From the NCBI RefSeq assembly GCF_002835465.1, contig NZ_PIZM01000001.1:248001-312000 (forward strand): a stretch of 64,000 nt of DNA, read 5' to 3'. Each line of letters opens with the position of its first letter. Positions within the stretch are counted from its first letter, which is position 1. Below the pieces are notes generated by a model that did not search any database, had not been told where the DNA came from, and saw only the letters and a program-made list of their open reading frames with translations. The position numbers and the translations under genes were made by a program. Positions 5,734 to 38,965 of this stretch are shown here, one piece after another. Source of the stretch: Psychromonas sp. psych-6C06 (GTDB taxonomy: Bacteria > Pseudomonadota > Gammaproteobacteria > Enterobacterales > Psychromonadaceae).

Positions 5734-6000
5734 TCACTCAATATCCTGCTTGATCACCGGCTGAAAGATATCGCCATATAAGCTGTGCAACACCATATTC
5801 TCTGGCGTGGTTTTCTTTTTTTTAATGCTTTGCCAAGGCACAATATACAGAGTTTGTGGAAGCTCTTTATTGCCTTTAATGTAAGTCGTGGTCAGCTCTA
5901 GCTTGTCTTCTGTTTGGGTATTTTCCTGTGTCTCTTCACTGGCTTGCACATTGGCGCTCAAGCCAAGCATTAACAATAGTAAGTATGTTGCTACTCTCAT
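5734..6000 (-). CDS. Small exported protein of the TPR operon
   Basis: An 88-residue protein with a clear signal peptide (MRVATYLLLLMLGLSANVQA). The mature part is about 68 residues, charged, with PWQSIKKKK near the middle; no known domain is recognised. It starts one base after the stop of the TPR lipoprotein gene upstream (TAAGATG), so it is translated with it and is the last gene of the four-gene TPR operon. A periplasmic accessory role to the TPR proteins is inferred only from context. Confidence 0.65.
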   Translation of the reverse strand: MRVATYLLLLMLGLSANVQASEETQENTQTEDKLELTTTYIKGNKELPQTLYIVPWQSIKKKKTTPENMVLHSLYGDIFQPVIKQDIE

Positions 6001-6001
6001 C

Positions 6002-6598
6002 TTATTGATTCCCTAATGTCGCGCGTAACCCTGCCAACCATTGTGTCGTTGTTTCATCTTTGCTGTCGATATTGTCCAAATAAAGTTGATAGTGAGTGAC
6101 GGCGTTTGCAATGTCTTGTAAATAAATATCGTAAAGTAGCGCAAGGTTATAGTGCGCTAATGCGTATTTAGGTTGGTAATTTAGTGCTTCTTGGTAGTAG
6201 GATTTAGCTTTTAATATTTCTCCTCTTCGCTGTGCTAAATTACCTGCAAGGTTAAGCGATTGCACCATTTTTGGATTTTTTTGAAGTGCTGTTGCTACTT
6301 GTTTTTGGGCATCATCATATCGTTCTTGTTTGACGCTAATTACTGCTAAATTAGCCCAAGAGCCGGCGATATCTGGCTGTAATTCACTCATTTTGGTAAA
6401 CAGTTGCTGCGCTTTTTCAAGCTCGCCGTTATTGAGTGCGATGAGTGCTTTGGTGTATACCGCTAACTCAATTTTAGTTGATTCAGCACTCTCTTTTTCG
6501 TTGGTTGTTGGCTCGGTTTGCTCAACGGGAGGCGTGCTATTACAGGCGCAAAGTAGCGCGATTAATAACGCTTGAATGGTTAATTTAGTGTAAAACAT
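6002..6598 (-). CDS. TPR lipoprotein
   Basis: A 198-residue protein with a lipoprotein signal (lipobox LCAC, Cys19) and about three tetratricopeptide repeats: the segments AGSWANLAVISVKQ, VQSLNLAGNLAQRRG and ALAHYNLALLYD are typical TPR helices. TPR lipoproteins of this size act as scaffolds or pilotins on the inner face of the outer membrane. The gene overlaps the preceding TPR gene by 14 bases. It recalls GltE of the Myxococcus Agl-Glt machine in type (small TPR lipoprotein), but homology is not shown. Confidence 0.75.
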   Translation of the reverse strand: MFYTKLTIQALLIALLCACNSTPPVEQTEPTTNEKESAESTKIELAVYTKALIALNNGELEKAQQLFTKMSELQPDIAGSWANLAVISVKQERYDDAQKQVATALQKNPKMVQSLNLAGNLAQRRGEILKAKSYYQEALNYQPKYALAHYNLALLYDIYLQDIANAVTHYQLYLDNIDSKDETTTQWLAGLRATLGNQ

Positions 6599-9404
6599 TG
6601 ATCACCTCTTCTACTTTAGGCTGGCGATTGTAGCGAAGTGGAAATAGTTTTTGCAGTGCGGTGAGACTGTGCCTTATCCACTTATCGTTTAGCCCATCAG
6701 CGCTGTATAGCAGGTTAATTTCATGGAACTCAATTGCTTTTTCTTCAAAGGGGAAGGCTTGATCTTCGAGTAAGAACATATATTCCTCTTTTTCATCTTC
6801 ATCAAGATGTTTAGGGACTTCTGATTTTAGTAGTGCTTGGCTGAAATCGTTGTAAATTTTTGCGATAGCAAAGGTGGCTTCAGTCACGGTTTCTTCAAGA
6901 CCATATGAAGAAGCTTTAGCATAAAAATTGACGCTCGCACGCATGGTTTTCTTTTTGCGTGTGAGGTGTTTTCTCAGTGGCTGAATTAAACGAATGCTAC
7001 TAAAAATCTGGTTTTGTTGACGCGCTAAAGCGATAGCTGCGTTCGACGCGATATAATTGGTTCGCGCTGTTTTTAGGTTGCTCGGTGTTTTTTTATCTGC
7101 GTTTAATATCTGCTGTTGCCAATATAAGCTTTTTTTCTGATTCTTTTTGTCAAGCGTGAGTAGCGTTAACTGATACAACGATTCTTGATATACATTAAAG
7201 GGTTTGCTGTAATTTTTAACGTATTTTTCGTATGAGCGAATCGCGGCGGTTGTTTCGTTATTCTCTTGATACAGTTGGGCCGCTTTTAGTAACGAGGCCA
7301 TTTTATATTCAATGCTGTCTTCGTTGCTTGACAATTTTTCAAGCTCTTTCGCTGCTGCTACATTCTGTTTTGAATTCAGGTAAGCCACAGAAAGTTTTTT
7401 AGTCACATCGGTGGTGAATTTATGTTTCGGGTAGCGCTTTCTAAACTGCTTAATATAGTCGATGGCAGGTAGCCACTTTTCATGCTCAATCGACAGGGCG
7501 ATGGCATCATATAAACCTGAAGAGGCAGCCTCGGTGTTTGGTGCGACATCAATAATACGCGCATAATGACCTATCGCCTCGTCTATCTGGTTGGCATCTT
7601 TTGCCTGCTCTGCTTGGTAAAAGATGGACAACGAAAGTCCTTCGAGCGCAGCATTACGTTGTTTGCTGTTGAGTGATTTGGTGTTTGCTAAATCTAGATA
7701 GGTCGATTCTGCGACAACAAACTGTTTATCGTGAAAATAGGCGTTTGCTTTGGTGCTGTTAATGCCATTAATGAGTGTCGATTTTTTCCCACTTACCACC
7801 AGTTCACTTAGCGCAATTGCCTGTTTATAGGCTTGGTTAGCATAGGCTGTGTCACTGACAAAAGCGATCACTGTTAAGGTGTTTTTATCGGTCGGGTATT
7901 GCTGCGCATAAAGCATAGCGTAGTCAATTAGTTTACTCAGCCACGCTTTTTTATCGCTTGGGTTGGTGCTGCTTTTATGTAATTCAGAGGCCAATAAAAT
8001 AGTTTGGTAGGCGGCTTCTTTATTGATGATGGTTTGCTCATCATAAGCGGCTAATTGATAGTATTTGACCGCATTGCTGTCATCACCTTGCTGCCCGTAA
8101 AGCGAAGCAAGGAGAAAATAGATGTTATCTTGACGCGCATAGCTCTTGAAATAGCGTAGGTAGTTATTGTACCAACGCTGAGCATATAAAAAGTCTTCTT
8201 GCTTTTTACTCTGCTGATATTGCTTATGGTAAGTCGCTGTTTCAGTCAGTATTTGAGATTTTAGTGCTAGGGTTGATTGCTCATATATTTTTTTGTTGAT
8301 CGGACTCTGGCTTTTCCAGTAGGCGCTATCAGGGTGATAAGTTTGATAAAAATGGTTAAACGCTTCGCTTCGTTTGTCGATAAAACCCGCTTCTTTCCAT
8401 ATTTCGATCATTTTTAATGCCGCCAGTGGGGCATGTTTTGAGTTCGGGTTATATTTGATAAAGCTGCTAAGACTGGCTGCTGCATCATTGTATTGTTGTT
8501 GCTTGAAAAACACCGCACTTAAACTGCGGTAGATGTAATAATCATCGTCCGCGTATTCTGAACCTTCTAGGTATATATTAAGCTGCTCTGCGCCCCCTAA
8601 ATATGAAAAAGACAGTGCCAATGCACGAAAGTATTCATTAAATAAGTTTTGTTGGCCGTTATTTAACTGCTCATATTCGGCAAAGCTATTTAAGTTAATA
8701 ACACGTACAAAATCATCGGCCGCTTCTAAGTAGAACTGTTGCTTAAAGCGAGACCAACCACGTTTGTAGAGCGCTTTCTCATAAAACACATTGTTCTTTT
8801 TAGACACGATAATTTCGGTATATTTATCTTCTGATAACCGGTAATTGCGTTTCGTAAACTCATACTCTGCTAATCGAAATTGTGCTTCTAAATAGAATTT
8901 CGATTTAGGGTATTTGTTAGCAAGTTGTTGAAGTGCTTTATGGGTCTTTTCATACTCCCCTTTTTGGTCGTAAGCTTTGGCAAGTTGATATAAAGAAACA
9001 TCATTATGGCGTGCATCAGGATAGTCCTGTAGTGATGTTTCAAGTAGTTCGATTACACGATTTAACTTCTGCTCTGCTAGCTGCGAGGCAACTTTCTCGT
9101 CTTCACTTTCTGTCAGTAGCTTCTCGGACAGTTTAAACTCGATATTTGCTAAACGGTTTAACGCTTCTGAGCGTGATAAGTCCTCTGTTGATGAGTGCTC
9201 AATATAGTTGATATAAGCATCACGAATATCGCTTTCAGATTTACTGAGGTCGACTTTTTTCTTCACTAATGGTTGCAACAGTGAGGTATCGTCCATGCTT
9301 TCGAGTGTCTGCCGTTCGGCAATATCCGCTTCATCGCCACAGGCACTAAGCAGTAAGCAAAAAAGCAGTGAGCTTGTTAGTTGTCGCATTTTAATGTGCA
9401 TCAT
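6585..9404 (-). CDS. Large TPR lipoprotein
   Basis: A 939-residue protein with a lipobox (LSAC, Cys22) followed by an almost continuous array of TPR-like helices, for example ASLYQLAKAYDQKGEYE-type segments such as LYQLAKAYDQKGEY (residues about 150-165) and LLASLYGQQGDDSNAVKYY near the middle. Families of this size occur beside ExbB/ExbD/AgmX clusters in gammaproteobacteria and serve as periplasmic scaffolds. It is the second gene of the operon 10848 to 5734. The start at 9404 is the first of three close ATGs (9404, 9401, 9389), none with a clear ribosome site. The function is inferred from domain type and context. Confidence 0.75.
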   Translation of the reverse strand: MMHIKMRQLTSSLLFCLLLSACGDEADIAERQTLESMDDTSLLQPLVKKKVDLSKSESDIRDAYINYIEHSSTEDLSRSEALNRLANIEFKLSEKLLTESEDEKVASQLAEQKLNRVIELLETSLQDYPDARHNDVSLYQLAKAYDQKGEYEKTHKALQQLANKYPKSKFYLEAQFRLAEYEFTKRNYRLSEDKYTEIIVSKKNNVFYEKALYKRGWSRFKQQFYLEAADDFVRVINLNSFAEYEQLNNGQQNLFNEYFRALALSFSYLGGAEQLNIYLEGSEYADDDYYIYRSLSAVFFKQQQYNDAAASLSSFIKYNPNSKHAPLAALKMIEIWKEAGFIDKRSEAFNHFYQTYHPDSAYWKSQSPINKKIYEQSTLALKSQILTETATYHKQYQQSKKQEDFLYAQRWYNNYLRYFKSYARQDNIYFLLASLYGQQGDDSNAVKYYQLAAYDEQTIINKEAAYQTILLASELHKSSTNPSDKKAWLSKLIDYAMLYAQQYPTDKNTLTVIAFVSDTAYANQAYKQAIALSELVVSGKKSTLINGINSTKANAYFHDKQFVVAESTYLDLANTKSLNSKQRNAALEGLSLSIFYQAEQAKDANQIDEAIGHYARIIDVAPNTEAASSGLYDAIALSIEHEKWLPAIDYIKQFRKRYPKHKFTTDVTKKLSVAYLNSKQNVAAAKELEKLSSNEDSIEYKMASLLKAAQLYQENNETTAAIRSYEKYVKNYSKPFNVYQESLYQLTLLTLDKKNQKKSLYWQQQILNADKKTPSNLKTARTNYIASNAAIALARQQNQIFSSIRLIQPLRKHLTRKKKTMRASVNFYAKASSYGLEETVTEATFAIAKIYNDFSQALLKSEVPKHLDEDEKEEYMFLLEDQAFPFEEKAIEFHEINLLYSADGLNDKWIRHSLTALQKLFPLRYNRQPKVEEVINVLH

Positions 9405-9435
9405 TTATAAACCATTTCATCATGTCACCAACTTA

Positions 9436-10848
9436 TTATTGGGTGTTATTGTCAAAGAGCCTTGCTAAACCGTAACGTGACTGGTTTAAGTAGCTAGTTA
9501 GGTGGCTGGCGCGTTGCGATAATATTTTTTTACTCATTTTACTGGCTAGCTTTGCGTAAGCTTGGCTCAGTGATTGAAGTTTTTTGGTTAGTGCTGGCTG
9601 CTGAATTTGCTGGGTTTCATTGCTAAAAGTGCTGATTGCATTGTAGTTAGCAAAGAAGTAATCGGGATAATGTGTGGAAAGGTTGACTTCATTTCCGGCG
9701 ATACTGACGCGCCTTGAATCATTTTTATTAATGCGTAAATCAGCAATCTCAAAAGAAGATTTTAGTGCTTGATTGATGGTCTTAATTTTTTGCTGATAAT
9801 AATCACTGGCTTCACTATAACCAACAGAAGCGGGCACTAATTGGTGCGATTTTTCATAGAAAAAGGGCATCAAAAGGTGTGACTCATGTACGGGTAAATC
9901 ATCTTGTGGGCGGTTTTTTAGAAAACGAGTGGCGTTTAATGCGCCAATGTCGTCATCCTGTTGTGCTGCTGTTAAAGCAATGCCAAGAATGGCTTGGTTG
10001 GCGTAACGACTATTAATGCCGACTTGGTGAAAAGTATTGCGAGCAGTGCGGTAATAGCCCTGATTAAGTAATGAGTAAGCGAGTGTGATATACAAGCGAT
10101 TTAAGGTCTTCTCTTGTGGTCTTTTTTGCTGCGCCTTTAAGAGATCTTTAATAATAATATGTCCATCTGTCCACCAACCTTGACGCAAGTTAGCAATGGC
10201 GAGGTTCAATTGGGCTGCAGTGTAATGGCTTGAGCTCGCCGGGATTTTTTCATAGATTTTTATCGCTTTATAATGCTCACCTTGTTGTTGCAGGGCGATA
10301 CCTGCCATCAGTAAAGCGTGCTGATGATTTTCTGGCGCTAGCAGGTTGCTATCTTTACTGAGCAGAGCTTGTACATCAGACCATTGTTCGCGTTTGAAAT
10401 AGTATGTCGCTAATAGATAGTTTGCGCGTGCAGTGAGTCCATCATAACCCTGTTCGATAATATGATTAAGCAACTGGTTTGCTGCATTGAACTCATTTAC
10501 TGCAAGCAATTTTTCTACATAATTGAAATATGTTGGATCGTCATAATAACTTTTTATCATGGCTAAGTTATTGACGATTAATGCGCTGTTGTGAACAACT
10601 TGCGTGGGTGCTTTATCAAGTTCTTTCTGTAATGCTGGTAACGATGGAAACTTTGCGCTTTGGTATTGAGGCTGTTTGAGTAAAGTTCGAAAAAAGGTCT
10701 GTGAAAACTGCTGATGCATGTCATCAACATCTTTTAACATGGTTGTAATTAATATTGACTCATTATCAGTGTCATCGGCCAACAAATACTGACTATAGGT
10801 TAAGCAGATAACAATAAAAAGTGTGGCTATATATTTCCAAGGATGCAT
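9436..10848 (-). CDS. Periplasmic TPR protein
   Basis: About 470 residues, with a signal peptide (MHPWKYIATLFIVICLTYS, then LLADD) and TPR-like helices through the middle, such as ARANYLLATYYFKREQW and HALLMAGIALQQQGEHYKAI. There is no lipobox Cys, so it is probably soluble periplasmic or anchored by its signal. The ATG at 10848 is preferred to the GTG at 10863 because GGA lies nine bases upstream. It is the first gene of the TPR operon and follows the clpV terminator, so the operon probably has its own promoter in the 35 bases beyond the hairpin or is reached by read-through. Confidence 0.7.
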   Translation of the reverse strand: MHPWKYIATLFIVICLTYSQYLLADDTDNESILITTMLKDVDDMHQQFSQTFFRTLLKQPQYQSAKFPSLPALQKELDKAPTQVVHNSALIVNNLAMIKSYYDDPTYFNYVEKLLAVNEFNAANQLLNHIIEQGYDGLTARANYLLATYYFKREQWSDVQALLSKDSNLLAPENHQHALLMAGIALQQQGEHYKAIKIYEKIPASSSHYTAAQLNLAIANLRQGWWTDGHIIIKDLLKAQQKRPQEKTLNRLYITLAYSLLNQGYYRTARNTFHQVGINSRYANQAILGIALTAAQQDDDIGALNATRFLKNRPQDDLPVHESHLLMPFFYEKSHQLVPASVGYSEASDYYQQKIKTINQALKSSFEIADLRINKNDSRRVSIAGNEVNLSTHYPDYFFANYNAISTFSNETQQIQQPALTKKLQSLSQAYAKLASKMSKKILSQRASHLTSYLNQSRYGLARLFDNNTQ

Positions 10849-10883
10849 TTGAATTCCGTTCACTGCATGAAGTCCATATAAAA

Positions 10884-10919
10884 AATTAGGACAACATTAT
10901 ACCTAATGTTGCCCTAATT
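10884..10919 (-). terminator. Terminator of the minus-strand T6SS operon
   Basis: A 15-base-pair stem with one mismatch (AATTAGGACAACATT / AATGTTGCCCTAATT) and a 6-base loop lies after the clpV stop. On the minus strand it ends in a T run (complement of TATAAAAAATT). Confidence 0.8.
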
Positions 10920-10972: not shown

Positions 10973-13672
10973 TTAAGAGATTTCGTAGCTAAATAAACCT
11001 TCATCGCAAACATTAACGTTGATGTGCGAAATCGCCTCATCATTAGACATTCTGGTCAAACACTCAATCGCCATTTCTGGTAACAGTGTGCGCGTTAGTA
11101 TGTTTTCAATATTACGTGCCCCAGTGTCTACTTCTTGGCTACGTGCAACAATATGTAACATTACATCATCATCGTAGCTAAAGGTCGCGTTATAGTGCTC
11201 CTTCACACGTTTAGCGATGCGGTTCATATTGATTTTACAAATTTTCAATAGATTATCATCGCCTAGTGGGTAATAAGGGATCACTGTAGTACGTCCAAGG
11301 AATGCTGGCTTAAAGTAGTTAAGTAGCTGTGGTCTGAAGTTATCTAGCAATACTTCTGGATCTGGCAGCTCTTCGCTTTGATCACAAATCGCACGAATAT
11401 GTTCTTCAGCCGCATTTGAAGTCATGATGATCACTGTGTTTCTGAAATCAATATCACGTCCTTCACCGTCTTTGATGGTGCCTTTATCAAACAGGTTATA
11501 GAAGATGTCTTGCACGCCCGGGTGCGCTTTTTCCATCTCATCTAACAGGATGATGCTGTGTGGTTTACGACGAGCAGCCTCTGTTAAAACGCCACCCTCA
11601 CCGTAACCAACGTAACCTGGAGGTGAACCCAGTAACATAGAAACTTTATGCTCTTCTTTAAATTCTGACATGTTAATGCAGGTGATGTTTTGTTCGCCAC
11701 CATAAAGTTCATCGGCCAGAGCTAAGGCTGTTTCTGTTTTACCGATACCACTTGAGCCAACCATGAAGAATACGCCAACCGGTTTACGTGGATCCGTTAA
11801 GCCCGCACGGGAAGTTTTAATACACTCTGCAATCGCTTCTAATGCGTGATCTTGTCCGATAACGCGTTTCTCTAATGAATCTTTAAGACCCATAATAGAT
11901 TTAATTTCGTTAGACACCATTTTGCCCACTGGAATACCTGTCCAGTTAGCAACAACCTCAGCAATCGCTTGCGCACCAACATTAACCTGAATCATCGGCT
12001 CATCGCCTTGTAATTCATTTAATTCACTCATTAATGTTTGTAACTGTTGTTTAATCTCAGCCAGCGTTTGCTCATCTAATAGTGCTTCATCAGCCTCTAC
12101 TTCTTTATCCTGTGATACGGCAAGCTGTGCTTTACTTTGCGCGTTGAAACTATTTTCAATCTGCTTTTGTAAACCGTGAATAGTTTCAACTAGCGCTAGC
12201 TCTTTTTTCCACTGCGCTTCTTGCTCCACCAATCGTTCTTCTGACGCTGCTTTCTGTGCAATTAATTCATCAATTTTTTCTTGATGATTACCATGTGCTG
12301 CATGTTCACGTTGAAGCGATTTGATCGTAGTATCTGCTTGGAGAATAAAGCGACGTGTATTTTCCACGCTTTCCGGTGTTGCACTTTGACTTAATGAAAC
12401 ACGTGCGCAGGCGGTATCTAATAAGCTCACTGATTTATCAGGTAGTTGACGAGAAGTGATGTAACGACTTGATAGTTTTACTGAGTCGACAATCGCTTCG
12501 TCCATAATGTTTACACCATGGTGATTTTGCAACATACCCGCGATAGCACGCATCATGTTGATCGCTTTTTCTTCACTTGGCTCTTCAATTTTAACTACTT
12601 GGAAGCGACGTGTTAACGCCGGATCACGTTCAAAGTATTTTTTGTATTCAGCCCATGTTGTTGCTGCAATGGTACGAAGTTCACCACGCGCAAGTGCTGG
12701 TTTAAGTAAGTTTGCAGCATCGCCTTGACCCTCTTTACCACCGGCACCAATGAGCGTATGCGCTTCATCGATAAACATGATGATAGGCTGCGGTGATGCT
12801 TTAACTTCTGCGATTACAGATTTTAAGCGATTTTCAAACTCACCTTTTACGCTTGCACCCGCTTGTAATAAACCTAAGTCTAATGAACGAACCGATACAT
12901 CTTTTAATGCATCAGGCACATCACCAGATGCAATACGCAGTGCAAATCCTTCAATAACCGCTGTTTTACCAACACCGGCTTCACCGGTTAAGATTGGGTT
13001 ATTTTGACGACGACGAATTAAGATATCGACGATTTGACGTATCTCTTCGTCACGACCCAAGATCGGATCAATTTTGCCTTTTTTAGCATCATCGGTGAGG
13101 TTGACAGTAAATTTATCCAGTGATGGTGTGCTGCTTGGCGTCGCTGATGCCGCATTGCCGTTTGATGTAGTATCACCCATCATGTTGCTTGCTGATTCTG
13201 CTGTGCTGCCTACAATCGCACGCGTTACTTCACGTAATGATTCTGGTTTGATTTTTTTCAATTCACCAGAGAGTGCGCCTGTTGTTTGACGTAATGTATC
13301 ATCAAGCAGTAATGCCGTTAAAATATGTGCTGAAGTTGCAACCGGCTGACCATACTCTACCGATGCAAGCATCCAGGCATTTTTGCTGATATCGACAATG
13401 GTCGGAGAAAGCGCTGGGGCACGGGTATTACCGCCTTTAATTCGGTCTAGTTCACGATTGATATCTTGAACAAGTCGCCCTAAGTCTACGTCGAACTTTT
13501 CTAAGATAGCGACAATATCGCTATCTCGGACTTCCAATAATTTTAATAACCAATGTTCAATTTCAACATTGAAGTGGGTACGCGCTAAACAGATCCCTGC
13601 TGCCCCTTCGAGTGCATTACGGGAGGTTTCATTTAAGCGACCAACCAATGACTTTAAATCAATTGTAACCAT
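10973..13672 (-). CDS. clpV: T6SS sheath-disassembly ATPase ClpV (TssH)
   Basis: ClpV is the AAA+ unfoldase that recycles the contracted TssB/TssC sheath. The 899-residue length is normal. Order: an N-terminal Clp repeat domain (about 1-150), a first AAA domain with Walker A GEAGVGKTA (about 227-235), a coiled middle domain (about 420-560), and a second AAA domain with GSSGIGKTE (about 635-643) and the sensor region SIILLDEMEKAHPGVQD. The N-terminal domain begins IDLKSLVGRLNETSRNALEGAA, the typical sheath-binding form. The start is supported by AAGGAATATAT directly upstream. It is the last gene of the minus T6SS operon. Confidence 0.96.
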   Translation of the reverse strand: MVTIDLKSLVGRLNETSRNALEGAAGICLARTHFNVEIEHWLLKLLEVRDSDIVAILEKFDVDLGRLVQDINRELDRIKGGNTRAPALSPTIVDISKNAWMLASVEYGQPVATSAHILTALLLDDTLRQTTGALSGELKKIKPESLREVTRAIVGSTAESASNMMGDTTSNGNAASATPSSTPSLDKFTVNLTDDAKKGKIDPILGRDEEIRQIVDILIRRRQNNPILTGEAGVGKTAVIEGFALRIASGDVPDALKDVSVRSLDLGLLQAGASVKGEFENRLKSVIAEVKASPQPIIMFIDEAHTLIGAGGKEGQGDAANLLKPALARGELRTIAATTWAEYKKYFERDPALTRRFQVVKIEEPSEEKAINMMRAIAGMLQNHHGVNIMDEAIVDSVKLSSRYITSRQLPDKSVSLLDTACARVSLSQSATPESVENTRRFILQADTTIKSLQREHAAHGNHQEKIDELIAQKAASEERLVEQEAQWKKELALVETIHGLQKQIENSFNAQSKAQLAVSQDKEVEADEALLDEQTLAEIKQQLQTLMSELNELQGDEPMIQVNVGAQAIAEVVANWTGIPVGKMVSNEIKSIMGLKDSLEKRVIGQDHALEAIAECIKTSRAGLTDPRKPVGVFFMVGSSGIGKTETALALADELYGGEQNITCINMSEFKEEHKVSMLLGSPPGYVGYGEGGVLTEAARRKPHSIILLDEMEKAHPGVQDIFYNLFDKGTIKDGEGRDIDFRNTVIIMTSNAAEEHIRAICDQSEELPDPEVLLDNFRPQLLNYFKPAFLGRTTVIPYYPLGDDNLLKICKINMNRIAKRVKEHYNATFSYDDDVMLHIVARSQEVDTGARNIENILTRTLLPEMAIECLTRMSNDEAISHINVNVCDEGLFSYEIS

Positions 13673-14131: not shown

Positions 14132-14132
14132 T

Positions 14133-17020: not shown

Positions 17021-17022
17021 GG

Positions 17023-25218: not shown

Positions 25219-25232
25219 TGGAAGATAAAGCG

Positions 25233-25727: not shown

Positions 25728-25812
25728 ATTTGTTGTTCGGTTGCCCTATGCTGCATTTTAGCGGGCGACCGATAGCTTTAAAAACGGATTCATAGAGCGG
25801 TAATAGAAATAT

Positions 25813-27147: not shown

Positions 27148-27174
27148 TCAACCTATTACATCAAAGGAATGAAA

Positions 27175-28077: not shown

Positions 28078-28100
28078 TGTAAACATTATCAGAGCATTCA

Positions 28101-31637: not shown

Positions 31638-32362
31638 TGAATATGCAACAACCTCTAGGTTTATACGGAAAACTCCCTAATTACGGTGATTTTATTCACC
31701 GTAATTTACCGGCAAAGTTTATAAATGTTTGGGATGACTGGTTACAACAGTTTGTTAGTGGCTCGCAAACACAGATGGGTGAACAGTGGCTTGATGTTTA
31801 CCTCACTAGCCCTATTTGGCGATTTGTTTTATCTGCAGGCATTATTGATGAACAACATTGGGCGGGTATTGTGCTACCCAGTGTTGATCAAGTGGGTCGA
31901 TATTACCCATTCTCGATTGCCATCCCATTACCTTCTTCGGTAAACCCTTTTGAGTTTATCTCGACTAATGGGCAATGGTTTGAACAGATAGAAGAGCTTG
32001 CTTTACGTGCTTTAGATGGACAGATTAATCTTGATGAATTAAGTGAGATGTCCGAACATCAAAAGTCACTTTTTCCGATGTCTTATCGAAAAACAGGTCA
32101 ACAACTGCAGGGTAACTGTAGCCAGCAAATTAACTTTCAATTTGCAGAAGAGCTACCAATAAATGCTTATGCCCATCTACTAGACAGCTTATTAACGGCG
32201 AATCGTGCTGCTTATAGTGTTTGGTCGACAAGTGGCTCAGAAAAAATATCCCCTTGCTTAGTCAGTACCCTAGGGATGCCATTGAGTAGCCAAATACCTG
32301 CCATGATGGATGGTCAATGGTCGCATTGGGGTTGGACTCAACCTTACACTGCCAATGAATAA
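31637..32362 (+). CDS. tagF: T6SS negative regulator TagF
   Basis: TagF (DUF2094) restrains T6SS, acting on Fha/TagH by a phosphorylation-independent route in Pseudomonas and Agrobacterium. The family signature GLYGKLPNYGDFIHRNLP opens the protein, followed by WAGIVLPSVDQVGRYYPF. The ATG at 31637 overlaps the tssM stop (TGATG) behind AGGGAATC, preferred to a start at 31619 inside tssM. Confidence 0.92.
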   Translation: MNMQQPLGLYGKLPNYGDFIHRNLPAKFINVWDDWLQQFVSGSQTQMGEQWLDVYLTSPIWRFVLSAGIIDEQHWAGIVLPSVDQVGRYYPFSIAIPLPSSVNPFEFISTNGQWFEQIEELALRALDGQINLDELSEMSEHQKSLFPMSYRKTGQQLQGNCSQQINFQFAEELPINAYAHLLDSLLTANRAAYSVWSTSGSEKISPCLVSTLGMPLSSQIPAMMDGQWSHWGWTQPYTANE

Positions 32363-32376
32363 ATGGATTTAGAATC

Positions 32377-33132
32377 ATGAATGACATAACGATTAGACGC
32401 CCTTTAACTTGGGTAAGTGAAGGGGCAACTGATGTTGGCACGGTAAGACCACTCAACGAAGATTCCTTTTTAATGCAACCCGATATGGGGCTGTGGACCG
32501 TCGCAGATGGCATGGGTGGCCATGATGGCGGTAGCGTTGCTAGCCAAATGATTGTTGAAAAATTACAACAGCTACAGCCTCAAAATCATCTTAATGACAT
32601 TGTTGACACAATTGAAAATAGCATCATAGAAGTCAATGATCGCTTACTTGCATACTCTCGTGAGCAGCTTAATGGTCGTACTATTGGCAGCACTGTAGTG
32701 TCATTATTGATTAAAGGTAACGTTGGTGTGTGTATGTGGGCGGGAGATTCACGTTTATACCGTTTTCGTCATAACCAGCTAACCCAAATTAGTACTGACC
32801 ATAGCCATGTGGCTGAACTTATTAAACAGGGTGTTATTTCAGAGGCTGAAGCTGAAACGCATCCTGAACGTAATGTGATCACTCGCGCAGTAGGGACCTC
32901 TGAGAAAATCGATGTTGATATCGATGTCTTTGAGCTTAATGTCGGTGATCAGTTTTTGCTTTGCAGTGACGGGCTTTATAATGCCGTTAATGATGTCGAT
33001 ATTTGTGCTTGTTTAAACCTCAATAGCCCAGCAGAATCGGTTGATAAACTGATACAAACGGCATTAACCAACAAGGCATCAGACAATGTTTCGGTTGTCT
33101 TGGTCAAAGGGATGTACCAAAGTGCAGAATAA
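32377..33132 (+). CDS. pppA: T6SS PP2C phosphatase PppA
   Basis: PppA removes the phosphate placed by PpkA. It has the metal-binding PP2C motifs: NEDSFL, VADGMGGHDGG, GDSRLYRFR, SDGLYNAV and SDNVSVVLV, in order, with a normal length of 251 residues. No membrane segment. It sits directly before ppkA with a 24-base gap. Confidence 0.95.
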   Translation: MNDITIRRPLTWVSEGATDVGTVRPLNEDSFLMQPDMGLWTVADGMGGHDGGSVASQMIVEKLQQLQPQNHLNDIVDTIENSIIEVNDRLLAYSREQLNGRTIGSTVVSLLIKGNVGVCMWAGDSRLYRFRHNQLTQISTDHSHVAELIKQGVISEAEAETHPERNVITRAVGTSEKIDVDIDVFELNVGDQFLLCSDGLYNAVNDVDICACLNLNSPAESVDKLIQTALTNKASDNVSVVLVKGMYQSAE

Positions 33133-33156: not shown

Positions 33157-35946
33157 ATGTCTGAAAATGATTCGCAAAATAAGCACACTGGTGGTCAAAA
33201 TAAAAGTGTTGTACAGGATGATAATAAAACTGTTTTTCGTAAAAATACGACGCAACCTGGTGCTGTAAAATCAACCACTGTTGATGATCAAACGGTGATT
33301 GCTAATAATATAACTCAGCCGATAAGACCGAGAGTGCAACCCAGTGCTGATGATGCCACTCGTTTTCAAGCACCGTTAAAGGGTGATGTAACGGATGCGA
33401 CAAAAATACGTTCTTCATCTACCCAAGCGCCACTGCAAACTGAACGAGATGATGCAACACAATTTCGTCCTACAGCTTCACGCGACGATGCGACCCAGTT
33501 TCGTGCGCCTTTAGGTGATACCAGCAGTGAATCAGTAAGTGCTATCGACCTATTACTGAATACACCAGAAGCTGATATTCAAGCACCAACTAGTAAAATG
33601 CTAAAAGGGCGTTTTGTCCTTGAAGATGTATTGGGTGTTGGTGGTATGGGGATAGTTTATAAGGCAAAGGATCTGCTTCGTGTAGAAGCACACGATAGAG
33701 ACCCTTATGTTGCCATTAAAGTATTAAGTGAAGAGTTTAAAACACACCCCGAAGCGTTTATTTCATTGCAGCGTGAATCGAAAAAAGCACAACATATTGC
33801 CAATCAAAATACCGTAAAAGTATACGATTTCGACCGTGATGGTGATGTGGTTTTCATGACCATGGAATATATGATTGGTCAGCCGTTAGATGAAATGGTA
33901 AAGCAATACCATGCGACTGGGTTACCGCGTAACGAGACCTGGAATATTCTCCACGGCATGTGTGCCGCACTTATTCACGCACACAGCGAAAATATCGTTC
34001 ATTCAGATTTGAAGCCGGGTAACGTATTTGTTACCGACCAAGGTATTGCTAAGATTTTCGACTTTGGTATTGCGCGAGCCGTGGCAACCATTGACCGAAG
34101 TAATAACGAAAAAGATAAAACGGTATTTGATGCCGGCAATTTAGGTGCATTAACACCCGCTTACGCAAGTCGTGAAATGCTACTCGGACAAGTACCAGAC
34201 GTGCGCGATGATATCTACGCATTAGGTTGTATCGCTTATGAAATGTTAACTGGAGATCATCCTTTTACGCGTTTGCCTGCTGATGAAGCCTACAACAAAA
34301 AATTAAAACCAAAGCGTATTCAAGGTATTAAAAAGCGCCATTGGAAAGCAATTGAGGCTGCGCTTGCCTTTAAACGTGAAGATCGTATCGCTTCAGTTGA
34401 AGTCTTTTTCAAGCAGATAACAGAAAAGAAAAAAACCAATATGGCAGCTTGGTTATTGTTCCTTTCTGCAGTAGGGGCAAGTGGCTACGCCTACACAGAA
34501 TTAACGAAGGTAGAAGCACCAAAAATATCGCAAGAAGAGTTAATGAATCAGCTCGAATTTAAAGTGCGCTATGAATTACTGCAAGAGAATATTAATAAAT
34601 TGTTAGCCGATGCCAATTTTACAGAGCGATGGCAGTCGTCGCTGTGGGATGAGATGCAAACCGTAGAAAACCTCTTCCCAGAAACACCAACACCATGGTA
34701 TTTCGAGAAAAAAGCAATTATTTATCAGTTGTATATTGAACAGATTAATGGCGCTATTGAAGGTAAAAATATTGCCTTAGCAAATAACTTGATCAGTAAT
34801 GCAGCACGTTACAATGATGATTTGACGTTACTTGATGAATACAAATTAGCTATTGAGCAATTGGTTGCTGAGCAAGCCGCTAAGCAGCAGGCAAATAAAG
34901 CAAAAAATGCAGAGCTTGAAGAGGCTAATAGGTTAGCTGCCGCAGAAAAGAAACGAAAAGCGGCTGCTGCTTGGAAAGCGAAACAAGCTAAGTTAAAGGC
35001 GCAACAAAAAGTTTCATCACAAAAGAAACAGAATCTTGAGTCTTATAATGTTGCGATGAGCAATGTGGAACAGCAACTTACCTGTACACAACGATTGAAT
35101 ATGCGTGACTTTAAAATTGCCATTGAAAAGTTGCGCTCATTAGATTTTTCTCGTTACCAAAAATCAGAAACCAATATCATTAAAGATCTTGCTAGTTGTA
35201 TCTCAACGGTTGCAGAAACTCATCCTGATTCAGCGCGTGATGCTAAGCGTTATGCGATGTTATTATTCACCAATAACTCAACCATTGAAGGTATTGAAAT
35301 CAGTGATATTGATGGTTGTCAATTGTCCATTGCTGGCTTAGGTGCTCGTGGTTCTCGTGCCGTGTGTAAAGATGCCTTAAAAGCAGGGGGCACTGCGCCA
35401 ACGATGGTGGTTGTTCCTGCAGGCAGCAAAGTGAAGGCATTTGCGATTGGTAAATACGAAGTCACGGTTGGGGATTACAATCATTACTGTAAAAAAACCA
35501 AGGTGTGCTCTTCGCTAAGTAATGTGAGTAAACGCTTACCAAAAACTAACCTCAGTGTTGCGCAAATATCGGCTTATATAAAGTGGTTAAATAGTAATAC
35601 AGGTAAGAAATATCGTTTGCCGACACAAGCGGAATGGACATATGCCGCTAAAGCAAATACAGGAAAGCTTGATTCGAACCGGAACTGTAACATTAGTTCA
35701 CGTGGTATCGAAAAGGGTAAAGAGTTGATCAACACCACAACCGGCAAACAAAACAAGTGGGGATTAGTTAACTATGCGGGAAATGCACAGGAGTTAGTGT
35801 ATGCTTCTGGCCGAAAATTAATGGCCGTAGGAGGGTCTTATCAAACTTCTATGCATGAGTGTACTAGTGATACCGTTGAGCCCCACAGCGGAAAAGCTGA
35901 CCAATATACGGGATTCCGTTTAGCAAGAAATATCGTAGGTAGTTAA
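33157..35946 (+). CDS. ppkA: T6SS Ser/Thr kinase PpkA with FGE-sulfatase domain
   Basis: PpkA phosphorylates T6SS parts to start assembly. The first 120 residues hold six short threonine motifs: KTVFR (Thr25), DDQTVI (Thr46), DDATRF (Thr68), DATKI (Thr82) and DDATQF twice (Thr101, Thr113). The kinase domain (about 150-420) has a glycine loop LGVGGMGIVYKAK, Lys188, HSDLKPGN (282-289, HSD in place of HRD) and DFG (302-304); KTVF recurs at Thr322 in the activation segment. A membrane segment (about 429-446), a charged coiled coil (about 565-640) and a formylglycine-generating-enzyme-like domain (about 755-926) follow, the last probably periplasmic. Kinase-FGE fusions are known in T6SS; whether the FGE part is catalytic cannot be told. 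Confidence 0.94.
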   Translation: MSENDSQNKHTGGQNKSVVQDDNKTVFRKNTTQPGAVKSTTVDDQTVIANNITQPIRPRVQPSADDATRFQAPLKGDVTDATKIRSSSTQAPLQTERDDATQFRPTASRDDATQFRAPLGDTSSESVSAIDLLLNTPEADIQAPTSKMLKGRFVLEDVLGVGGMGIVYKAKDLLRVEAHDRDPYVAIKVLSEEFKTHPEAFISLQRESKKAQHIANQNTVKVYDFDRDGDVVFMTMEYMIGQPLDEMVKQYHATGLPRNETWNILHGMCAALIHAHSENIVHSDLKPGNVFVTDQGIAKIFDFGIARAVATIDRSNNEKDKTVFDAGNLGALTPAYASREMLLGQVPDVRDDIYALGCIAYEMLTGDHPFTRLPADEAYNKKLKPKRIQGIKKRHWKAIEAALAFKREDRIASVEVFFKQITEKKKTNMAAWLLFLSAVGASGYAYTELTKVEAPKISQEELMNQLEFKVRYELLQENINKLLADANFTERWQSSLWDEMQTVENLFPETPTPWYFEKKAIIYQLYIEQINGAIEGKNIALANNLISNAARYNDDLTLLDEYKLAIEQLVAEQAAKQQANKAKNAELEEANRLAAAEKKRKAAAAWKAKQAKLKAQQKVSSQKKQNLESYNVAMSNVEQQLTCTQRLNMRDFKIAIEKLRSLDFSRYQKSETNIIKDLASCISTVAETHPDSARDAKRYAMLLFTNNSTIEGIEISDIDGCQLSIAGLGARGSRAVCKDALKAGGTAPTMVVVPAGSKVKAFAIGKYEVTVGDYNHYCKKTKVCSSLSNVSKRLPKTNLSVAQISAYIKWLNSNTGKKYRLPTQAEWTYAAKANTGKLDSNRNCNISSRGIEKGKELINTTTGKQNKWGLVNYAGNAQELVYASGRKLMAVGGSYQTSMHECTSDTVEPHSGKADQYTGFRLARNIVGS

Positions 35947-35949
35947 TTT

Positions 35950-36207
35950 ATGAATATTACAGAGTGCTCACCACAACTGAGCGAGTTAGCTGATAAACAT
36001 GCTAACTATCAAATTTCATTTGAATCTTATCGTGCACAACGCAAGTTGTTATTAGATAGCTTAGATAAACAATACAATGGCGTAACTGCGACGGCCTCGG
36101 TGGTGCTTCCTGAGCCAGCCATGGAAGAGGAAGAAACACTTGACAAAACACAGCCCTATTTGGCATCAAAAATTGGAAAATGCATCAATTTTTTGAAACG
36201 TAATTAG
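35950..36207 (+). CDS. 85-residue protein between ppkA and exbB
   Basis: The gene starts four bases after ppkA and precedes the ExbB gene by 50 bases, so it belongs to the operon. The protein has a helical N-terminal half (ITECSPQLSELADKHANY), and the tail contains DKTQPYLASK, which resembles the threonine motifs of PpkA and TssL. No domain is recognised and no signal peptide is seen. I infer a link to the PpkA/TagH switch from position and from that motif. Confidence 0.55.
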   Translation: MNITECSPQLSELADKHANYQISFESYRAQRKLLLDSLDKQYNGVTATASVVLPEPAMEEEETLDKTQPYLASKIGKCINFLKRN

Positions 36208-36257
36208 TAACTTTTAAACACAACAATTTTAAACAACACAACAATAAAGGTATTTTT

Positions 36258-36875
36258 ATGGAAATCGTTAAATTATTTCAAGCGGGTGGCACGTTTATGT
36301 ATCCGATACTACTGGTATTAGGCATCGGTGTGGTGATCTCGATTGAACGTTTTATTTATTTAAGTAAAACGCAACGCTCAACAAACTCTCTATGGACTGA
36401 GCTTGTACCGATGCTTAAAGCACTCGATTTTCAACGCGCATTAAAATTAACAAGTAATAACAAAACGCCAATTGCAACGGTCCTTAATTACGGTTTTGCT
36501 CGTCACGAAGACAATAAAAGCCGTGAAGTGATTGAAGCTGCAATGGAAGAGGGCATTATGGATGAAATGCCTAAACTGACCAAACGTACGCATTATTTAG
36601 CAACCTTTGCTAATATCGCCACTTTACTTGGGCTACTTGGTACCATTATCGGTCTTATTCAAGCCTTCACCGCGGTTGCACAGGCTGATCCCGCTGAAAA
36701 AGCGGATCTACTCTCTGCCAGTATTTCGGTCGCGATGAACACCACGGCATTCGGTCTGATTGCCGCTATTCCTTTATTATTAACACACTCATACCTAGTG
36801 ACTAAAACAGCACACTTAGTTGATAACATTGAAAAATCTTCATTAAAAGCACTGAACTTAATGGTGCGAGATTAA
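36258..36875 (+). CDS. MotA/TolQ/ExbB proton-channel protein
   Basis: TolQ/ExbB proteins form the pentameric stator of proton-driven envelope machines. This 205-residue protein has three membrane segments (about 10-30, 120-145, 160-185), with the family block LATFANIATLLGLLGTIIGLI and the second block SISVAMNTTAFGLIAAIPLLL. AAAGG lies before the ATG. It is followed by two ExbD genes and an AgmX-like gene, the arrangement known from gliding (AglRQS) and AgmX clusters. A link to the T6SS is inferred from the shared operon. Confidence 0.9.
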   Translation: MEIVKLFQAGGTFMYPILLVLGIGVVISIERFIYLSKTQRSTNSLWTELVPMLKALDFQRALKLTSNNKTPIATVLNYGFARHEDNKSREVIEAAMEEGIMDEMPKLTKRTHYLATFANIATLLGLLGTIIGLIQAFTAVAQADPAEKADLLSASISVAMNTTAFGLIAAIPLLLTHSYLVTKTAHLVDNIEKSSLKALNLMVRD

Positions 36876-36879
36876 CAAT

Positions 36880-37413
36880 ATGAGAAGAAGAGGCTTTAAA
36901 ACCATCCAGCAAGCGGAAGAGCTTAATATCACCGCCTTTTTGAACTTAATGGTGATATTGGTTCCTTTTCTGCTTATCACAGCCGTGTTTTCACGTTTAA
37001 CGGTGCTGGAGCTTAACTTGCCAGCCCTTGATGCAAAGGGTGATAACTCTGAACAGATAAAATTACAGTTAGAGCTGGTGATCAGGGACGATAGATTTGA
37101 TATACAAGATGGTAATTTGGGCTTGATTAAATCGATTGAAAGAACAGGGACCGATAGTCAATGGAAACCATTTACAGATGCAATGATTGCAATAAAAACG
37201 CGTTTTCCAGATGAAAGTGGTATCTCACTTTTACTTGAACCAGATGTGGAATATAAAACCATGATAAAGGTAATGGATAAAGTACGCAGTGCCGATGTCG
37301 TTGCAGGTTTTGAAGTAGAAACGGTGGTGCTGTTTCCTGATATATCTATCGGAGATGCACAACCTTTAGCGTCCGTCGAAAGCAGCGCTAATCAAAGTAA
37401 TGGTGAAGAGTAG
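36880..37413 (+). CDS. ExbD/TolR-like protein without the channel Asp
   Basis: A 177-residue ExbD/TolR protein with one N-terminal membrane segment (NLMVILVPFLLITAVF) and a periplasmic domain. In this family the segment carries an aspartate needed for proton passage (FIDxM pattern in ExbD). Here the matching position reads FLNLM, with Asn22. The paralogue next door keeps the Asp. This protein may therefore be a partner rather than a proton carrier. It starts four bases after the exbB stop. Confidence 0.85.
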   Translation: MRRRGFKTIQQAEELNITAFLNLMVILVPFLLITAVFSRLTVLELNLPALDAKGDNSEQIKLQLELVIRDDRFDIQDGNLGLIKSIERTGTDSQWKPFTDAMIAIKTRFPDESGISLLLEPDVEYKTMIKVMDKVRSADVVAGFEVETVVLFPDISIGDAQPLASVESSANQSNGEE

Positions 37414-37418
37414 ATATA

Positions 37419-37931
37419 ATGAATAACGCTAAGTTATCAGGCCGTTCAAAACGTATGTCAAATTTTGAAGGTCTACATAAACACACTGGACTAAACCTTG
37501 TCTCATTAATGGATATATTTACCATACTGGTTTTCTTTTTATTGGTTAGCTCTGGCTCGCAACAATTACCTAATAGTAAAGATATTGCGCTACCTAGCTC
37601 AACTGCAGATAAGGTGCCACAAGAGACGTTAATTATCAGTATTACGGAAACTGAAATATTGGTTCAGGGACAAAAAGTTGCCGATATTGCACCATTGTTA
37701 GCAGACGATTTGCAAACCACACTCATTGCTGGCTTGCAAAAAGAGTTAATGTTCAGAGCAGATAATCGACTAACTACAGGTGATGATCAAACTGAAGGGC
37801 TAGCAGTGACAATTATGGGGGATGAGAATATTCCCTACCGTATACTGCGTAAAATATTAGCGACCTGTCGTCAAACCAACTATACCAAAATCGCATTTGC
37901 CGCAGTGCAAACGGCTAAGAGCAAAGGGTAA
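37419..37931 (+). CDS. ExbD/TolR-like protein with channel Asp
   Basis: A 170-residue ExbD/TolR protein. The membrane segment reads SLMDIFTILVFFLLV, with Asp32 at the proton-relay position, and a periplasmic domain follows (about 45-165). With the ExbB protein it should form the proton-driven unit. It lies five bases after the first ExbD gene and five before the AgmX-like gene. Confidence 0.9.
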   Translation: MNNAKLSGRSKRMSNFEGLHKHTGLNLVSLMDIFTILVFFLLVSSGSQQLPNSKDIALPSSTADKVPQETLIISITETEILVQGQKVADIAPLLADDLQTTLIAGLQKELMFRADNRLTTGDDQTEGLAVTIMGDENIPYRILRKILATCRQTNYTKIAFAAVQTAKSKG

Positions 37932-37936
37932 TATCT

Positions 37937-38965
37937 ATGACCGTTGCGAATTATCAACAACTGGCCCTCGATTGGCACCCCGAGAGTAAAACCGATAAAT
38001 CTTTTTTAATTTTTGCCATTGTTACTTTATCGTTGCTGATGGCCTTAGGTTTCTATATGGGCAGCATTGAGCTTCCTAAAGAAACACAACGCCAAAAAGT
38101 GGTTGTTCCTGAACGGGTTGCCAAGTTTATTCTAGATAAACCCAAGCCAAAACCTATTCCAAAGCCGGTAGTAAAAGAGCCACCTAAACCGAAACCGGTT
38201 AAGAAAGAGGAGCCTAAACCTAAGGAAGAGCCTAAGCCGAAAGAAAAGGTTCAAATAAAGAAGCAACCACCTAAAAAAGAGCGTGTGTTAACAGAAAAGC
38301 AGATTAAAGCACGTGATACTGCAAGTAAAAGTGGTTTATTAGCGTTAAGCAATGATCTTGCTGATTTAATGGATACCTCTGATATCGATGATATGGTCGG
38401 GACTAAACTTGCTAAAAGTAACAAAGCGGGAACCGATGCAGCAGTATTAACAGCGAGTAACGGAACAAATGTACTAACTGCAGGCGCGAGTAAAGGCAGT
38501 GGTGGTGTGAGTGCGGGTAACGTAGGCTCTGGTGGAAAATCCAATGTTGCACTTAACAAGAGCGCTGTTGCCGATGCACAACAAGCATTATTGGCATCGC
38601 GTGAAGACACTAAAATTGTTAAAAGTGAGCAGAAGGTTGACAAATCAAGTACTAAAAATGCTAAGCGTACAGGTAATTATCGTCCTGAAGAAGATATTGC
38701 ATATGTAATGGATAAAAACAAAAGTAAATTGCATGCTCTGTATCGTAAAGCGCGTCGTACGAATCCAAATATTCAAGGAAAAATTGTTCTCGAAATCACC
38801 ATCTCACCGACCGGCCAAGTGTTAAAAGTTAACATTGCTTCGAGTGAACTTGATGATGCAAAACTTGAAAAACGAATTGTTGCACGTGTTAAAAAATTCA
38901 ATTTTGGTGCGGATAATGTGAAAGCAGTGACCGTGACCTATCCTATTGAGTTTTTACCTTCGTAA
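37937..38965 (+). CDS. AgmX/TonB-like energy transducer
   Basis: A 342-residue protein with a short cytoplasmic start, one membrane segment (about 22-41, FLIFAIVTLSLLMALGF), a Pro/Lys-rich stretch (about 60-115, repeats of PKPK and EEPK), a Gly/Ser-rich middle, and a C-terminal AgmX/PglI-type TonB-like domain (about 255-342, GKIVLEITISPTGQV, then KFNFGADNVKAVTVTYPI). TonB-like proteins carry the energy of ExbB/ExbD to outer-membrane partners. In Myxococcus AgmX (GltJ) works with the AglRQS stator in gliding. It is the last gene of the plus operon, ahead of the terminator at 39005. Confidence 0.85.
   Translation: MTVANYQQLALDWHPESKTDKSFLIFAIVTLSLLMALGFYMGSIELPKETQRQKVVVPERVAKFILDKPKPKPIPKPVVKEPPKPKPVKKEEPKPKEEPKPKEKVQIKKQPPKKERVLTEKQIKARDTASKSGLLALSNDLADLMDTSDIDDMVGTKLAKSNKAGTDAAVLTASNGTNVLTAGASKGSGGVSAGNVGSGGKSNVALNKSAVADAQQALLASREDTKIVKSEQKVDKSSTKNAKRTGNYRPEEDIAYVMDKNKSKLHALYRKARRTNPNIQGKIVLEITISPTGQVLKVNIASSELDDAKLEKRIVARVKKFNFGADNVKAVTVTYPIEFLPS

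What the first reader, a model, noticed from the sequence alone, without database searches (positions are those of the whole stretch)
5734..38965. T6SS operons end in two halves of an Agl-Glt-like energised envelope module
The plus operon runs from ppkA through the 85-residue gene into ExbB, ExbD, ExbD and AgmX-like genes with gaps of 4-50 bases. The minus T6SS operon is followed directly by four TPR/lipoprotein genes. ExbB-ExbD-ExbD-AgmX plus TPR lipoproteins is the parts list of proton-driven Agl-Glt-type machines. Here the parts bracket a T6SS instead of forming one cluster, and one half shares the T6SS operon. A proton-driven complex that places, opens the wall for, or senses the T6SS is a plausible new coupling.
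Basis: partly seen in the sequence, partly recalled or inferred. Interest (0 to 1): 0.8.

Follow-up and report, generated by a model that had tools for sequence, protein, structure and literature searches.

The report
T6SS locus with built-in envelope motor
In this marine Psychromonas-type bacterium and dozens of relatives, the genes of a bacterial harpoon (type VI secretion system) come with a set of genes for what looks like a proton-driven machine spanning the cell envelope, which suggests that a motor helps to place or trigger this harpoon.

Summary
In detail: the plus T6SS arm ends ppkA-s85-exbB-exbD-exbD-gltG-like, and clpV on the minus arm is followed by three TPR genes and a small exported gene. 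In relatives these genes form one cluster, the gammaproteobacterial Agl-Glt "core complex" of unknown function (PMC3169522).

The split is not a one-off. Among 365 genomes of the order, 8 of 64 ExbB orthologues are T6SS-linked, in three families. With named genomes, 43 distinct linked loci were found. The ExbB/ExbD tree separates 48 of 48 linked rows from 40 free-standing ones. Some genomes keep both kinds. Linked T6SSs have TssK at least 60% identical to the window's; in 88 genomes with TssK at 50% or less, no ExbB hit lies beside TssK.

So this is a T6SS-dedicated Agl-Glt-like motor. Most likely it acts with PpkA (beside ExbB in 42 of 43 linked loci) to trigger or place the T6SS; this function is inferred. 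Against strict coupling: a few genomes keep motor and PpkA away from any T6SS core. My literature searches found no earlier description.

The parts
5734..6000 (-). small88: exported small protein with conserved GNKELP...YIVPW core; last gene of the TPR half; probable counterpart of the extra core-complex gene
   Evidence: no Pfam or NCBIfam hit; found in linked and free-standing loci (alignment A4)
6002..6598 (-). TPR198: TPR lipoprotein, GltE/Tgl-like
   Evidence: TPR families, GltE model 39.7 bits, below its cut-off of 225; N-terminus ...LLCACN read by eye
6585..9404 (-). TPR939: large TPR lipoprotein in the position of GltD
   Evidence: TPR_6, YbgF and BamD-type TPR matches; N-terminus ...LLSACG by eye; relative lies upstream of ExbB in free-standing loci
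9436..10863 (-). TPR475: exported TPR protein, possibly in the place of GltC
   Evidence: first gene after clpV, also upstream of TPR939 in some free-standing loci
10884..10919 (-). terminator-like hairpin between clpV and TPR475
10973..13672 (-). ClpV/TssH
   Evidence: TIGR03345 1257.5 bits
14133..22435 (-). T6SS minus arm: TssG, TssF, TssE, second TssC-like (17514-19019), TssC (19220-20710), TssB, TssA
   Evidence: TssF not scanned with a model, placed by conserved position and 63-88% identity in seven relatives
23233..33132 (+). T6SS plus arm: FHA/TagH, TssJ, TssK, TssL, TssM, TagF, PppA
33157..35946 (+). PpkA: Ser/Thr kinase (155-392), C-terminal FGE-sulfatase-like domain (758-882); one TM between them by eye
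   Evidence: Pfam; FGE domain in 40 of 40 PpkAs scanned
35950..36207 (+). s85: small protein between ppkA and exbB, conserved YR..RK.LLD.ID..NG pattern
   Evidence: alignment A5; similar small ORF in most of the loci listed (by eye)
36258..36875 (+). ExbB/TolQ/AglR-type motor subunit
   Evidence: PF01618; linked-clade alignment A1
36880..37413 (+). ExbD1: ExbD/TolR-like, Asn at the transmembrane Asp position
   Evidence: PF02472; N in 101 of 102 rows, S in one
37419..37931 (+). ExbD2: ExbD/TolR-like with transmembrane Asp
   Evidence: PF02472; D in 100 of 100 rows
37937..38965 (+). GltG/PglI-like force-transducer: one TM and Pro/Lys-rich stretch (by eye), TonB-like C-terminal domain
   Evidence: PF03544, NF033768 above cut-off; A3

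Best explanation
A duplicate of the gammaproteobacterial Agl-Glt core complex (an ExbB/ExbD/ExbD proton motor, a GltG-like transducer, exported and lipoprotein TPR proteins) has become a standing part of one T6SS subtype, split over the two arms and inherited with them (shown by synteny and trees). Inferred mechanism: ExbB-ExbD1-ExbD2 converts proton flow into motion of the GltG-like protein, which crosses the periplasm and works on the TPR939/TPR198 lipoproteins at the outer membrane. This trans-envelope link engages the presumed periplasmic FGE-like domain of PpkA, which then phosphorylates FHA-binding threonines, so that the T6SS is assembled where and when the link is under load (contact, damage). 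It would do the job that TagQRST, TssW or TslA do elsewhere, but energised.
For: Linkage: 8 of 64 ExbB hits in 365 order genomes, seven about 10 kb from TssK and the eighth (G012) on a short contig with tssM, tagF, pppA and ppkA. Of 8 class genomes with TssK 60-73% identical, 7 have ExbB about 10 kb away and in the eighth it is cut by the contig end; 0 of 31 with TssK at 50% or less have an ExbB hit on the TssK contig. Exb-half split: 48 of 48 linked rows, 0 of 40 free-standing, UFBoot 93 (seven of the 48 repeat a genome). Of 40 linked-type TPR939 copies in the tree, 29 have ClpV in the stretch read, mostly 1.5-2.4 kb away, also after inversion in two. In L077 and L079 the Exb half sits inside one co-directional T6SS gene string. 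PpkA lies just upstream of ExbB in 42 of 43 linked loci (in L098 the contig ends) and in four loci without T6SS core genes nearby (L086, L089, L090, L113). FGE domain in 40 of 40 PpkAs scanned. Motor residues are kept. Precedents: PpkA plus trans-envelope modules trigger or place T6SSs (PMC12607579 abstract and passages; PMC10482370 passages); the Agl motor serves both Glt and Nfs complexes (PMC3858216 passages).
Against: No functional or interaction data. FGE-type PpkA also occurs in 2 of 9 PpkA-like kinases scanned from T6SSs without a linked motor (L222, L224). L089, L090, L113 and L100 belong to the linked clade but lie away from T6SS genes, in genomes whose T6SS is of another subtype (TssK 44-47%), and the genome of L086 gave no TssK match: the module can persist without its own T6SS core. 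In 3 of 36 linked loci whose genomes were searched (L078, L081, L095) only a free-type TPR939 or none was found (drafts). The IQ-TREE TPR939 tree puts five free-standing sequences (L104, L105, L107, L108, L110) inside the linked group. A terminator-like hairpin separates clpV from the TPR half here. TagQRST in the genome was not tested.
Confidence: 0.5

Rival explanations
1. The motor is a mechanical part of the T6SS: it moves, steers or locks the membrane complex laterally in the envelope, as Agl-Glt and Agl-Nfs complexes are transported, independent of PpkA signalling.
For: Agl-Glt/Nfs complexes are transported along the envelope by the AglRQS motor (PMC3858216 passages); the halves end both T6SS arms, not only the kinase side; the Exb half lies inside the T6SS gene string in L077 and L079.
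Against: PpkA, not a Tss gene, is the constant neighbour of ExbB, also in four loci without T6SS core genes nearby.
Confidence: 0.22
2. Hitch-hiking: the module has an unrelated envelope function and merely rides at the operon ends, gaining T6SS-like expression only.
For: The module family mostly occurs free of T6SS (56 of 64 hits); members of the linked clade persist without an adjacent T6SS (L089, L090, L100, L113); both halves sit at the arm ends in the window and the six genomes.
Against: The linked clade is separate and conserved over several families, both halves stay at the same T6SS despite inversions and re-ordering, and some genomes keep separate generic copies.
Confidence: 0.17
3. 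An energised uptake or export unit paired with the T6SS, for example taking back a T6SS-secreted metal- or nutrient-binding protein, as TonB systems do.
For: TonB_C domain; T6SS-secreted proteins that feed TonB-dependent or porin uptake are known (PMC10482370 passages).
Against: No outer-membrane transporter was recognised among the neighbouring genes scanned; the ExbB, ExbD and TolQ/TolR equivalog cut-offs are not met; TPR proteins are the usual partners.
Confidence: 0.06

Closest known systems
Agl-Glt core complex (group B: gltC, D, E, G and aglR, Q, S plus one extra gene) of Gammaproteobacteria, Luciano et al. 2011 (PMC3169522; sections 11-13 and passages read)
   Same: Same kinds of parts; relatives of this locus have them as one cluster in one order; function unknown in that paper
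   Different: Here split in two and built into a T6SS locus; separate clade; the paper holds no 'type VI secretion' and no 'T6SS' (0 occurrences)
Myxococcus Agl-Glt (gliding) and Agl-Nfs (spore coat) machines (PMC3169522 sections and passages; PMC3858216 passages)
   Same: PMF motor with a GltG-type transducer and TPR/lipoprotein envelope parts; earlier examples of the core being specialised
   Different: Partner is a T6SS, not gliding or spore coat; no group A gene was recognised among the locus genes scanned; one ExbD lacks the TM Asp
TagQRST-PpkA (P. aeruginosa), TssW-PpkA-Fha (A. citrulli), TslA/OmpA (Acinetobacter) (PMC12607579 abstract and passages; PMC10482370 passages)
   Same: Trans-envelope modules that activate or place a T6SS, the first two through PpkA
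   Different: In the passages read none contains an ExbB/ExbD-type proton motor or TonB-like transducer
Proton motor of type IX secretion and Flavobacterium gliding (PMC8986121; search listing only; the name GldLM is recalled)
   Same: A proton-driven motor serving a secretion system
   Different: Different secretion system and (recalled) different transducer

Membership tests
Type VI secretion system | Core genes tssA-C, E, G-M in one locus | tested here: met
   TssA, B, C, E, G, H, J, L, M over NCBIfam cut-offs, TssK; TssF by position and identity only
Type VI secretion system | Hcp and VgrG encoded | tested here: met
   hcp and vgrG next to each other on another contig of the genome, G000:C14 5416-8172
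Agl-Glt core complex | TolQ-like plus two TolR-like genes clustered with a GltG-type TonB_C protein | tested here: met
Agl-Glt core complex | GltE and GltG equivalog models | tested here: not met
   39.7 of 225 bits and 51.4 of 650 bits; the domain model NF033768 is met. Hence 'Agl-Glt-like'.
Agl-Glt core complex | GltD and GltC homologues | tested here: inconclusive
   TPR939 and TPR475 are assigned by position; no GltD or GltC model matched at E 0.01; no Myxococcus sequence was compared
Agl-Glt core complex | Single clustered region in non-Deltaproteobacteria | tested here: not met
   Split by the T6SS in the window; clustered in the nine relatives read
TonB or Tol-Pal system | ExbB/TolQ and ExbD/TolR equivalog cut-offs | tested here: not met
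   TolQ 75.8 of 221, ExbB 46.3 of 206.2, TolR 25.8 and 29.7 of 127.3
PMF-driven motor | Conserved TM Asp in ExbD-type subunit and channel Thr in ExbB-type subunit | tested here: met
   Asp in ExbD2 100 of 100; T129, T162, T163 invariant in A1; their role is recalled from ExbB/TolQ work
Gliding machinery | Group A genes gltA, B, F, H-K | not tested
   Only the window and loci were read
TagQRST-type trigger | tagQ, R, S, T genes | not tested
   No genome search was made for them; none recognised among the locus genes scanned

The most novel reading that the evidence does not exclude
There is a class of T6SS whose assembly or firing is powered or steered by the proton-motive force: a dedicated Agl-Glt-type motor is physically coupled to the T6SS membrane complex and moves it to, or arms it at, contact sites.
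Probability: 0.3. Interest if true: 0.95.

Novelty: new variant of a known kind. Interest (0 to 1): 0.8.

Why it matters
How T6SSs choose where and when to assemble is still being worked out, and the gammaproteobacterial Agl-Glt core complex was described in 2011 as of unknown function (PMC3169522). This locus ties the two questions together: it gives the orphan motor a concrete partner and gives the T6SS field a candidate proton-driven positioning or trigger module. Named environmental carriers such as Colwellia echini, Saccharophagus sp. K07, Teredinibacter sp. ISS155 and Aliikangiella make it testable.

Tried and rejected
Rejected: one-off split or assembly artefact (recurs in independent assemblies); simple T6SS insertion between small88 and exbB (the TPR half would then point the other way; it is inverted relative to the clustered order); FGE-type PpkA as exclusive signature of the motor (2 of 9 kinases from T6SSs without a linked motor have it); a DKT motif in s85 as a general feature (only in the Psychromonas/Colwellia rows); module-borne PpkA as sole kinase in G746 (five other kinase hits).

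Inconclusive: whether the T6SS in G761, G747 and G755 lacks its own PpkA (contigs end; in G746 no PpkA was found within the cluster stretch read); the linked Exb half in G776 (TssK 70%, contig ends after pppA); G154's ExbB against its TssK (position not listed). Structure prediction, fold search, RNA-family tools and the other collections (viral contigs, phages, plasmids, E. coli) were not used. PADLOC matched PpkA only, through its kinase domain; PDB sequence searches gave TolQ/ExbB for ExbB, PvdO and ToxD for the PpkA C-terminus, nothing for the GltG-like protein.

Selections: PpkA scan took 40 of 52 listed PpkA sequences (window plus 51 references, the full-length ones mostly); of ten kinases found in T6SSs without a linked motor nine were scanned (L229 left out); order genomes were 57 of the T6SS-positive ones with strong scores, besides the linked ones.
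Full report
What is there. The window lies at G000:C1:248001-312000 of a 3.7-Mb genome. Two divergent T6SS arms run from the centre. The plus arm is FHA-TssJ-K-L-M-TagF-PppA-PpkA-s85-ExbB-ExbD-ExbD-GltG-like; the minus arm is TssA-B-C-C2-E-F-G-lipoprotein-ClpV-TPR475-TPR939-TPR198-small88. Reading frames from ppkA to the GltG-like gene are 3-50 nt apart.

What the parts are. Relatives in the same order carry the terminal genes as one cluster in the order (TPR475)-TPR939-TPR198-small88-ExbB-ExbD1-ExbD2-GltG-like. I read nine such loci (G021, G036, G109, G123, G045, G059, G026, G053, G081). tblastn found TPR475 in only one of the nine, small88 in five, TPR198 in eight; in G081 the stretch ends after ExbD1. 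This fits the "core complex" of gltC, D, E, G and aglR, Q, S plus one extra gene that Luciano et al. describe as clustered in Gammaproteobacteria and of unknown function (PMC3169522, sections 11-13 and passages). By NCBIfam the AgmX/PglI C-terminal domain model is met, but the GltE and GltG equivalog cut-offs are not, so I call it Agl-Glt-like.

Is the split real and conserved? In 148 relatives, ExbB orthologues with E below 1e-50 occur in 24 genomes; three (G000, G013, G012) are T6SS-linked. In 365 genomes of the order there are 64 ExbB hits at E 1e-40 in 52 genomes. Seven lie about 10 kb from TssK, and the eighth (G012) sits on a short contig behind tssM, tagF, pppA and ppkA; these eight are in three families. 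The other 56 are not near a listed TssK; for G154 the TssK position was not listed. The eight are 65-100% identical to the window's ExbB, the others 47-61%. Reading G205, G303, G339, G260, G268 and G013 in full shows the same two-arm layout. G012 shows it in part, with TPR475 at a contig end and no TPR939 found (51% complete). G205, G303, G260, G268 and G339 also have one or two unlinked ExbB copies; five of these copies were read and are free-standing clusters.

Wider sample. A scan of 84,980 species genomes with the linked-clade ExbB alignment gave 223 relatives; the best 80 were kept, so weaker ones are unseen. By gene content within 10 kb, 41 are T6SS-linked, 9 have PpkA but no other T6SS gene in reach (five of them, L068, L071, L073, L075 and L080, on contigs that end close by), 3 have neither (L063 and L088 at contig ends; L100 in a housekeeping neighbourhood), and 27 are free-standing. 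With the eight order genomes and G602 that makes 50 linked rows, of which seven repeat a genome: 43 distinct linked loci, the window included. They include Psychromonas, Colwellia, Aliikangiella, Agaribacterium, Saccharophagus, Teredinibacter, Marinagarivorans and many MAGs labelled Gammaproteobacteria; one (L073, PpkA only) is labelled Bacteroidetes.

Both halves. TPR939 was sought in 50 handles; six genomes appear there under two handles. Of the 36 linked loci in that set, 33 have a TPR939 copy 37-60% identical to the window's; L078, L081 and L095 show only copies of 28-30% or none. The TPR939 tree holds 40 linked-type rows: 29 have ClpV in the stretch read, 9 do not (L179, L182-L186, L188, L195, L202; several end at a contig end), and 2 are L089 and L113. 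Of the 29, 26 have ClpV and TPR939 on one strand within 2.4 kb, one at 7 kb (L187), and two on opposite strands but adjacent (L198, L199).

Rearranged cases. In L077 and L079 the GltG-like gene is followed co-directionally by TssA-B-C-C2-E-F (TssG too in L077), so the Exb half sits inside the T6SS string. In L089, L090 and L113 the TPR half stands divergent from ppkA-exbB with no T6SS core between; L086 shows TPR475 divergent from ppkA at a contig end. These four (five rows) form a group with UFBoot 100 inside a 31-row group with UFBoot 100. The genomes of L089, L090 and L113 hold a T6SS of another subtype on another contig (TssK 44-46%); the genome of L086 gave no TssK match. That is evidence against strict dependence on this T6SS, and for a tight pair of motor and PpkA.

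Trees. ExbB+ExbD1+ExbD2, 100 rows and 542 columns: one split holds 48 of 48 T6SS-linked rows, 9 PpkA-only and 3 undecided rows and 0 of 40 free-standing rows (FastTree support 0.883; IQ-TREE UFBoot 93). Seven of the 48 rows and one PpkA-only row repeat a genome; L091 and L180 were left out as incomplete. TPR939, 76 rows: FastTree gives 29 of 29 linked rows and 0 of 36 free-standing (0.991); IQ-TREE instead puts five free-standing rows, L104, L105, L107, L108 and L110, inside the group (UFBoot 89-97). The single origin of the Exb half is thus moderately supported; for the TPR half the base of the group is unsettled.

T6SS subtype. With the window's TssK as query, the class sample (369 genomes) and the handle search (80 genomes) show a gap: 60% identity or more against 50% or less. 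Of 19 distinct genomes on the high side (own included), 18 carry an ExbB of the linked kind and one (G776) could not be tested; in G771 (L088) its neighbours are cut off. On the low side, 31 class genomes and 57 order genomes have no ExbB hit beside TssK, though some have unlinked copies. Four locus genomes (G746, G747, G755, G761) have the linked-clade ExbB on another contig.

Motor chemistry. The transmembrane Asp is kept in ExbD2 (100 of 100 rows) and is Asn in ExbD1 (101 of 102, Ser in one), in linked and free-standing systems alike. The family thus pairs one ExbD with and one without the proton-site Asp; this is not specific to the T6SS clade.

PpkA. It lies just upstream of ExbB, mostly with the small s85-like ORF between, in 42 of 43 linked loci; in L098 the contig ends. 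All 40 members scanned, of 52 listed, have a kinase and an FGE-sulfatase-like domain. Among nine PpkA-like kinases from T6SSs without a linked motor (some short or cut), two have FGE and the others VWA, Cache/HAMP, caspase or none of these. In P. aeruginosa TagQRST act through PpkA; in A. citrulli outer-membrane TssW interacts with PpkA and places the T6SS (PMC12607579 abstract and passages; PMC10482370 passages). The proposed mechanism transfers this logic; every step after 'a motor encoded with a T6SS' is inference.

Print. Searches showed, in the titles and abstracts listed, no paper that describes an ExbB/ExbD/GltG/TPR set in a T6SS locus. Some of these lists were cut (15 of 253, 12 of 48, 20 of 31), and most subscription papers and all preprints are missing from that library. 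PMC3169522 and PMC12204202 do not mention type VI secretion.

Verdict. A conserved T6SS subtype with a dedicated Agl-Glt-like proton motor: well supported as a genomic unit, function open.

Noticed in passing
17514-19019: Second TssC-like sheath gene between tssC and tssE (TIGR03355 429.7 bits); also in the linked loci read across that region, while three T6SSs without a linked motor (L031, L205, L207) have ImpE there instead.
   Followed up: partly
36880-37931: Two ExbD-like subunits, one with Asn and one with Asp at the proton site, across the family: a possibly asymmetric motor.
   Followed up: partly
39269-39856: o195: no family hit; His and Cys motifs (GGHGH, LACFGA) look like a clan CD peptidase (by eye). 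In Colwellia loci L171-L173 a 74-79% identical gene sits beside small88 at the other end of the locus.
   Followed up: no
40204-44880: o263, a DUF4123 protein (40971-42272) and an unassigned 858-aa protein: looks like a T6SS effector island after the motor half; relatives of the first two also follow it in G013.
   Followed up: partly
G000:C14:5416-9714 (L231): hcp, vgrG and a DUF2169 gene away from the main locus.
   Followed up: partly
33286-33502 and 27169-27240: PpkA and TssL N-termini carry DxT-type motifs, possibly FHA-docking phosphothreonine sites (the role is recalled).
   Followed up: partly
13715-14170: Small Cys-containing lipoprotein-like gene between tssG and clpV with no family hit; found in Psychromonas and Colwellia loci and some others.
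   Followed up: no
46889-47902: 337-aa gene with the look of a REP-associated tyrosine transposase (by eye, not searched).
   Followed up: no
L187 (between ClpV and TPR475); L184, L188 (upstream of TPR475): o263-like genes near the start of the TPR half.
   Followed up: no
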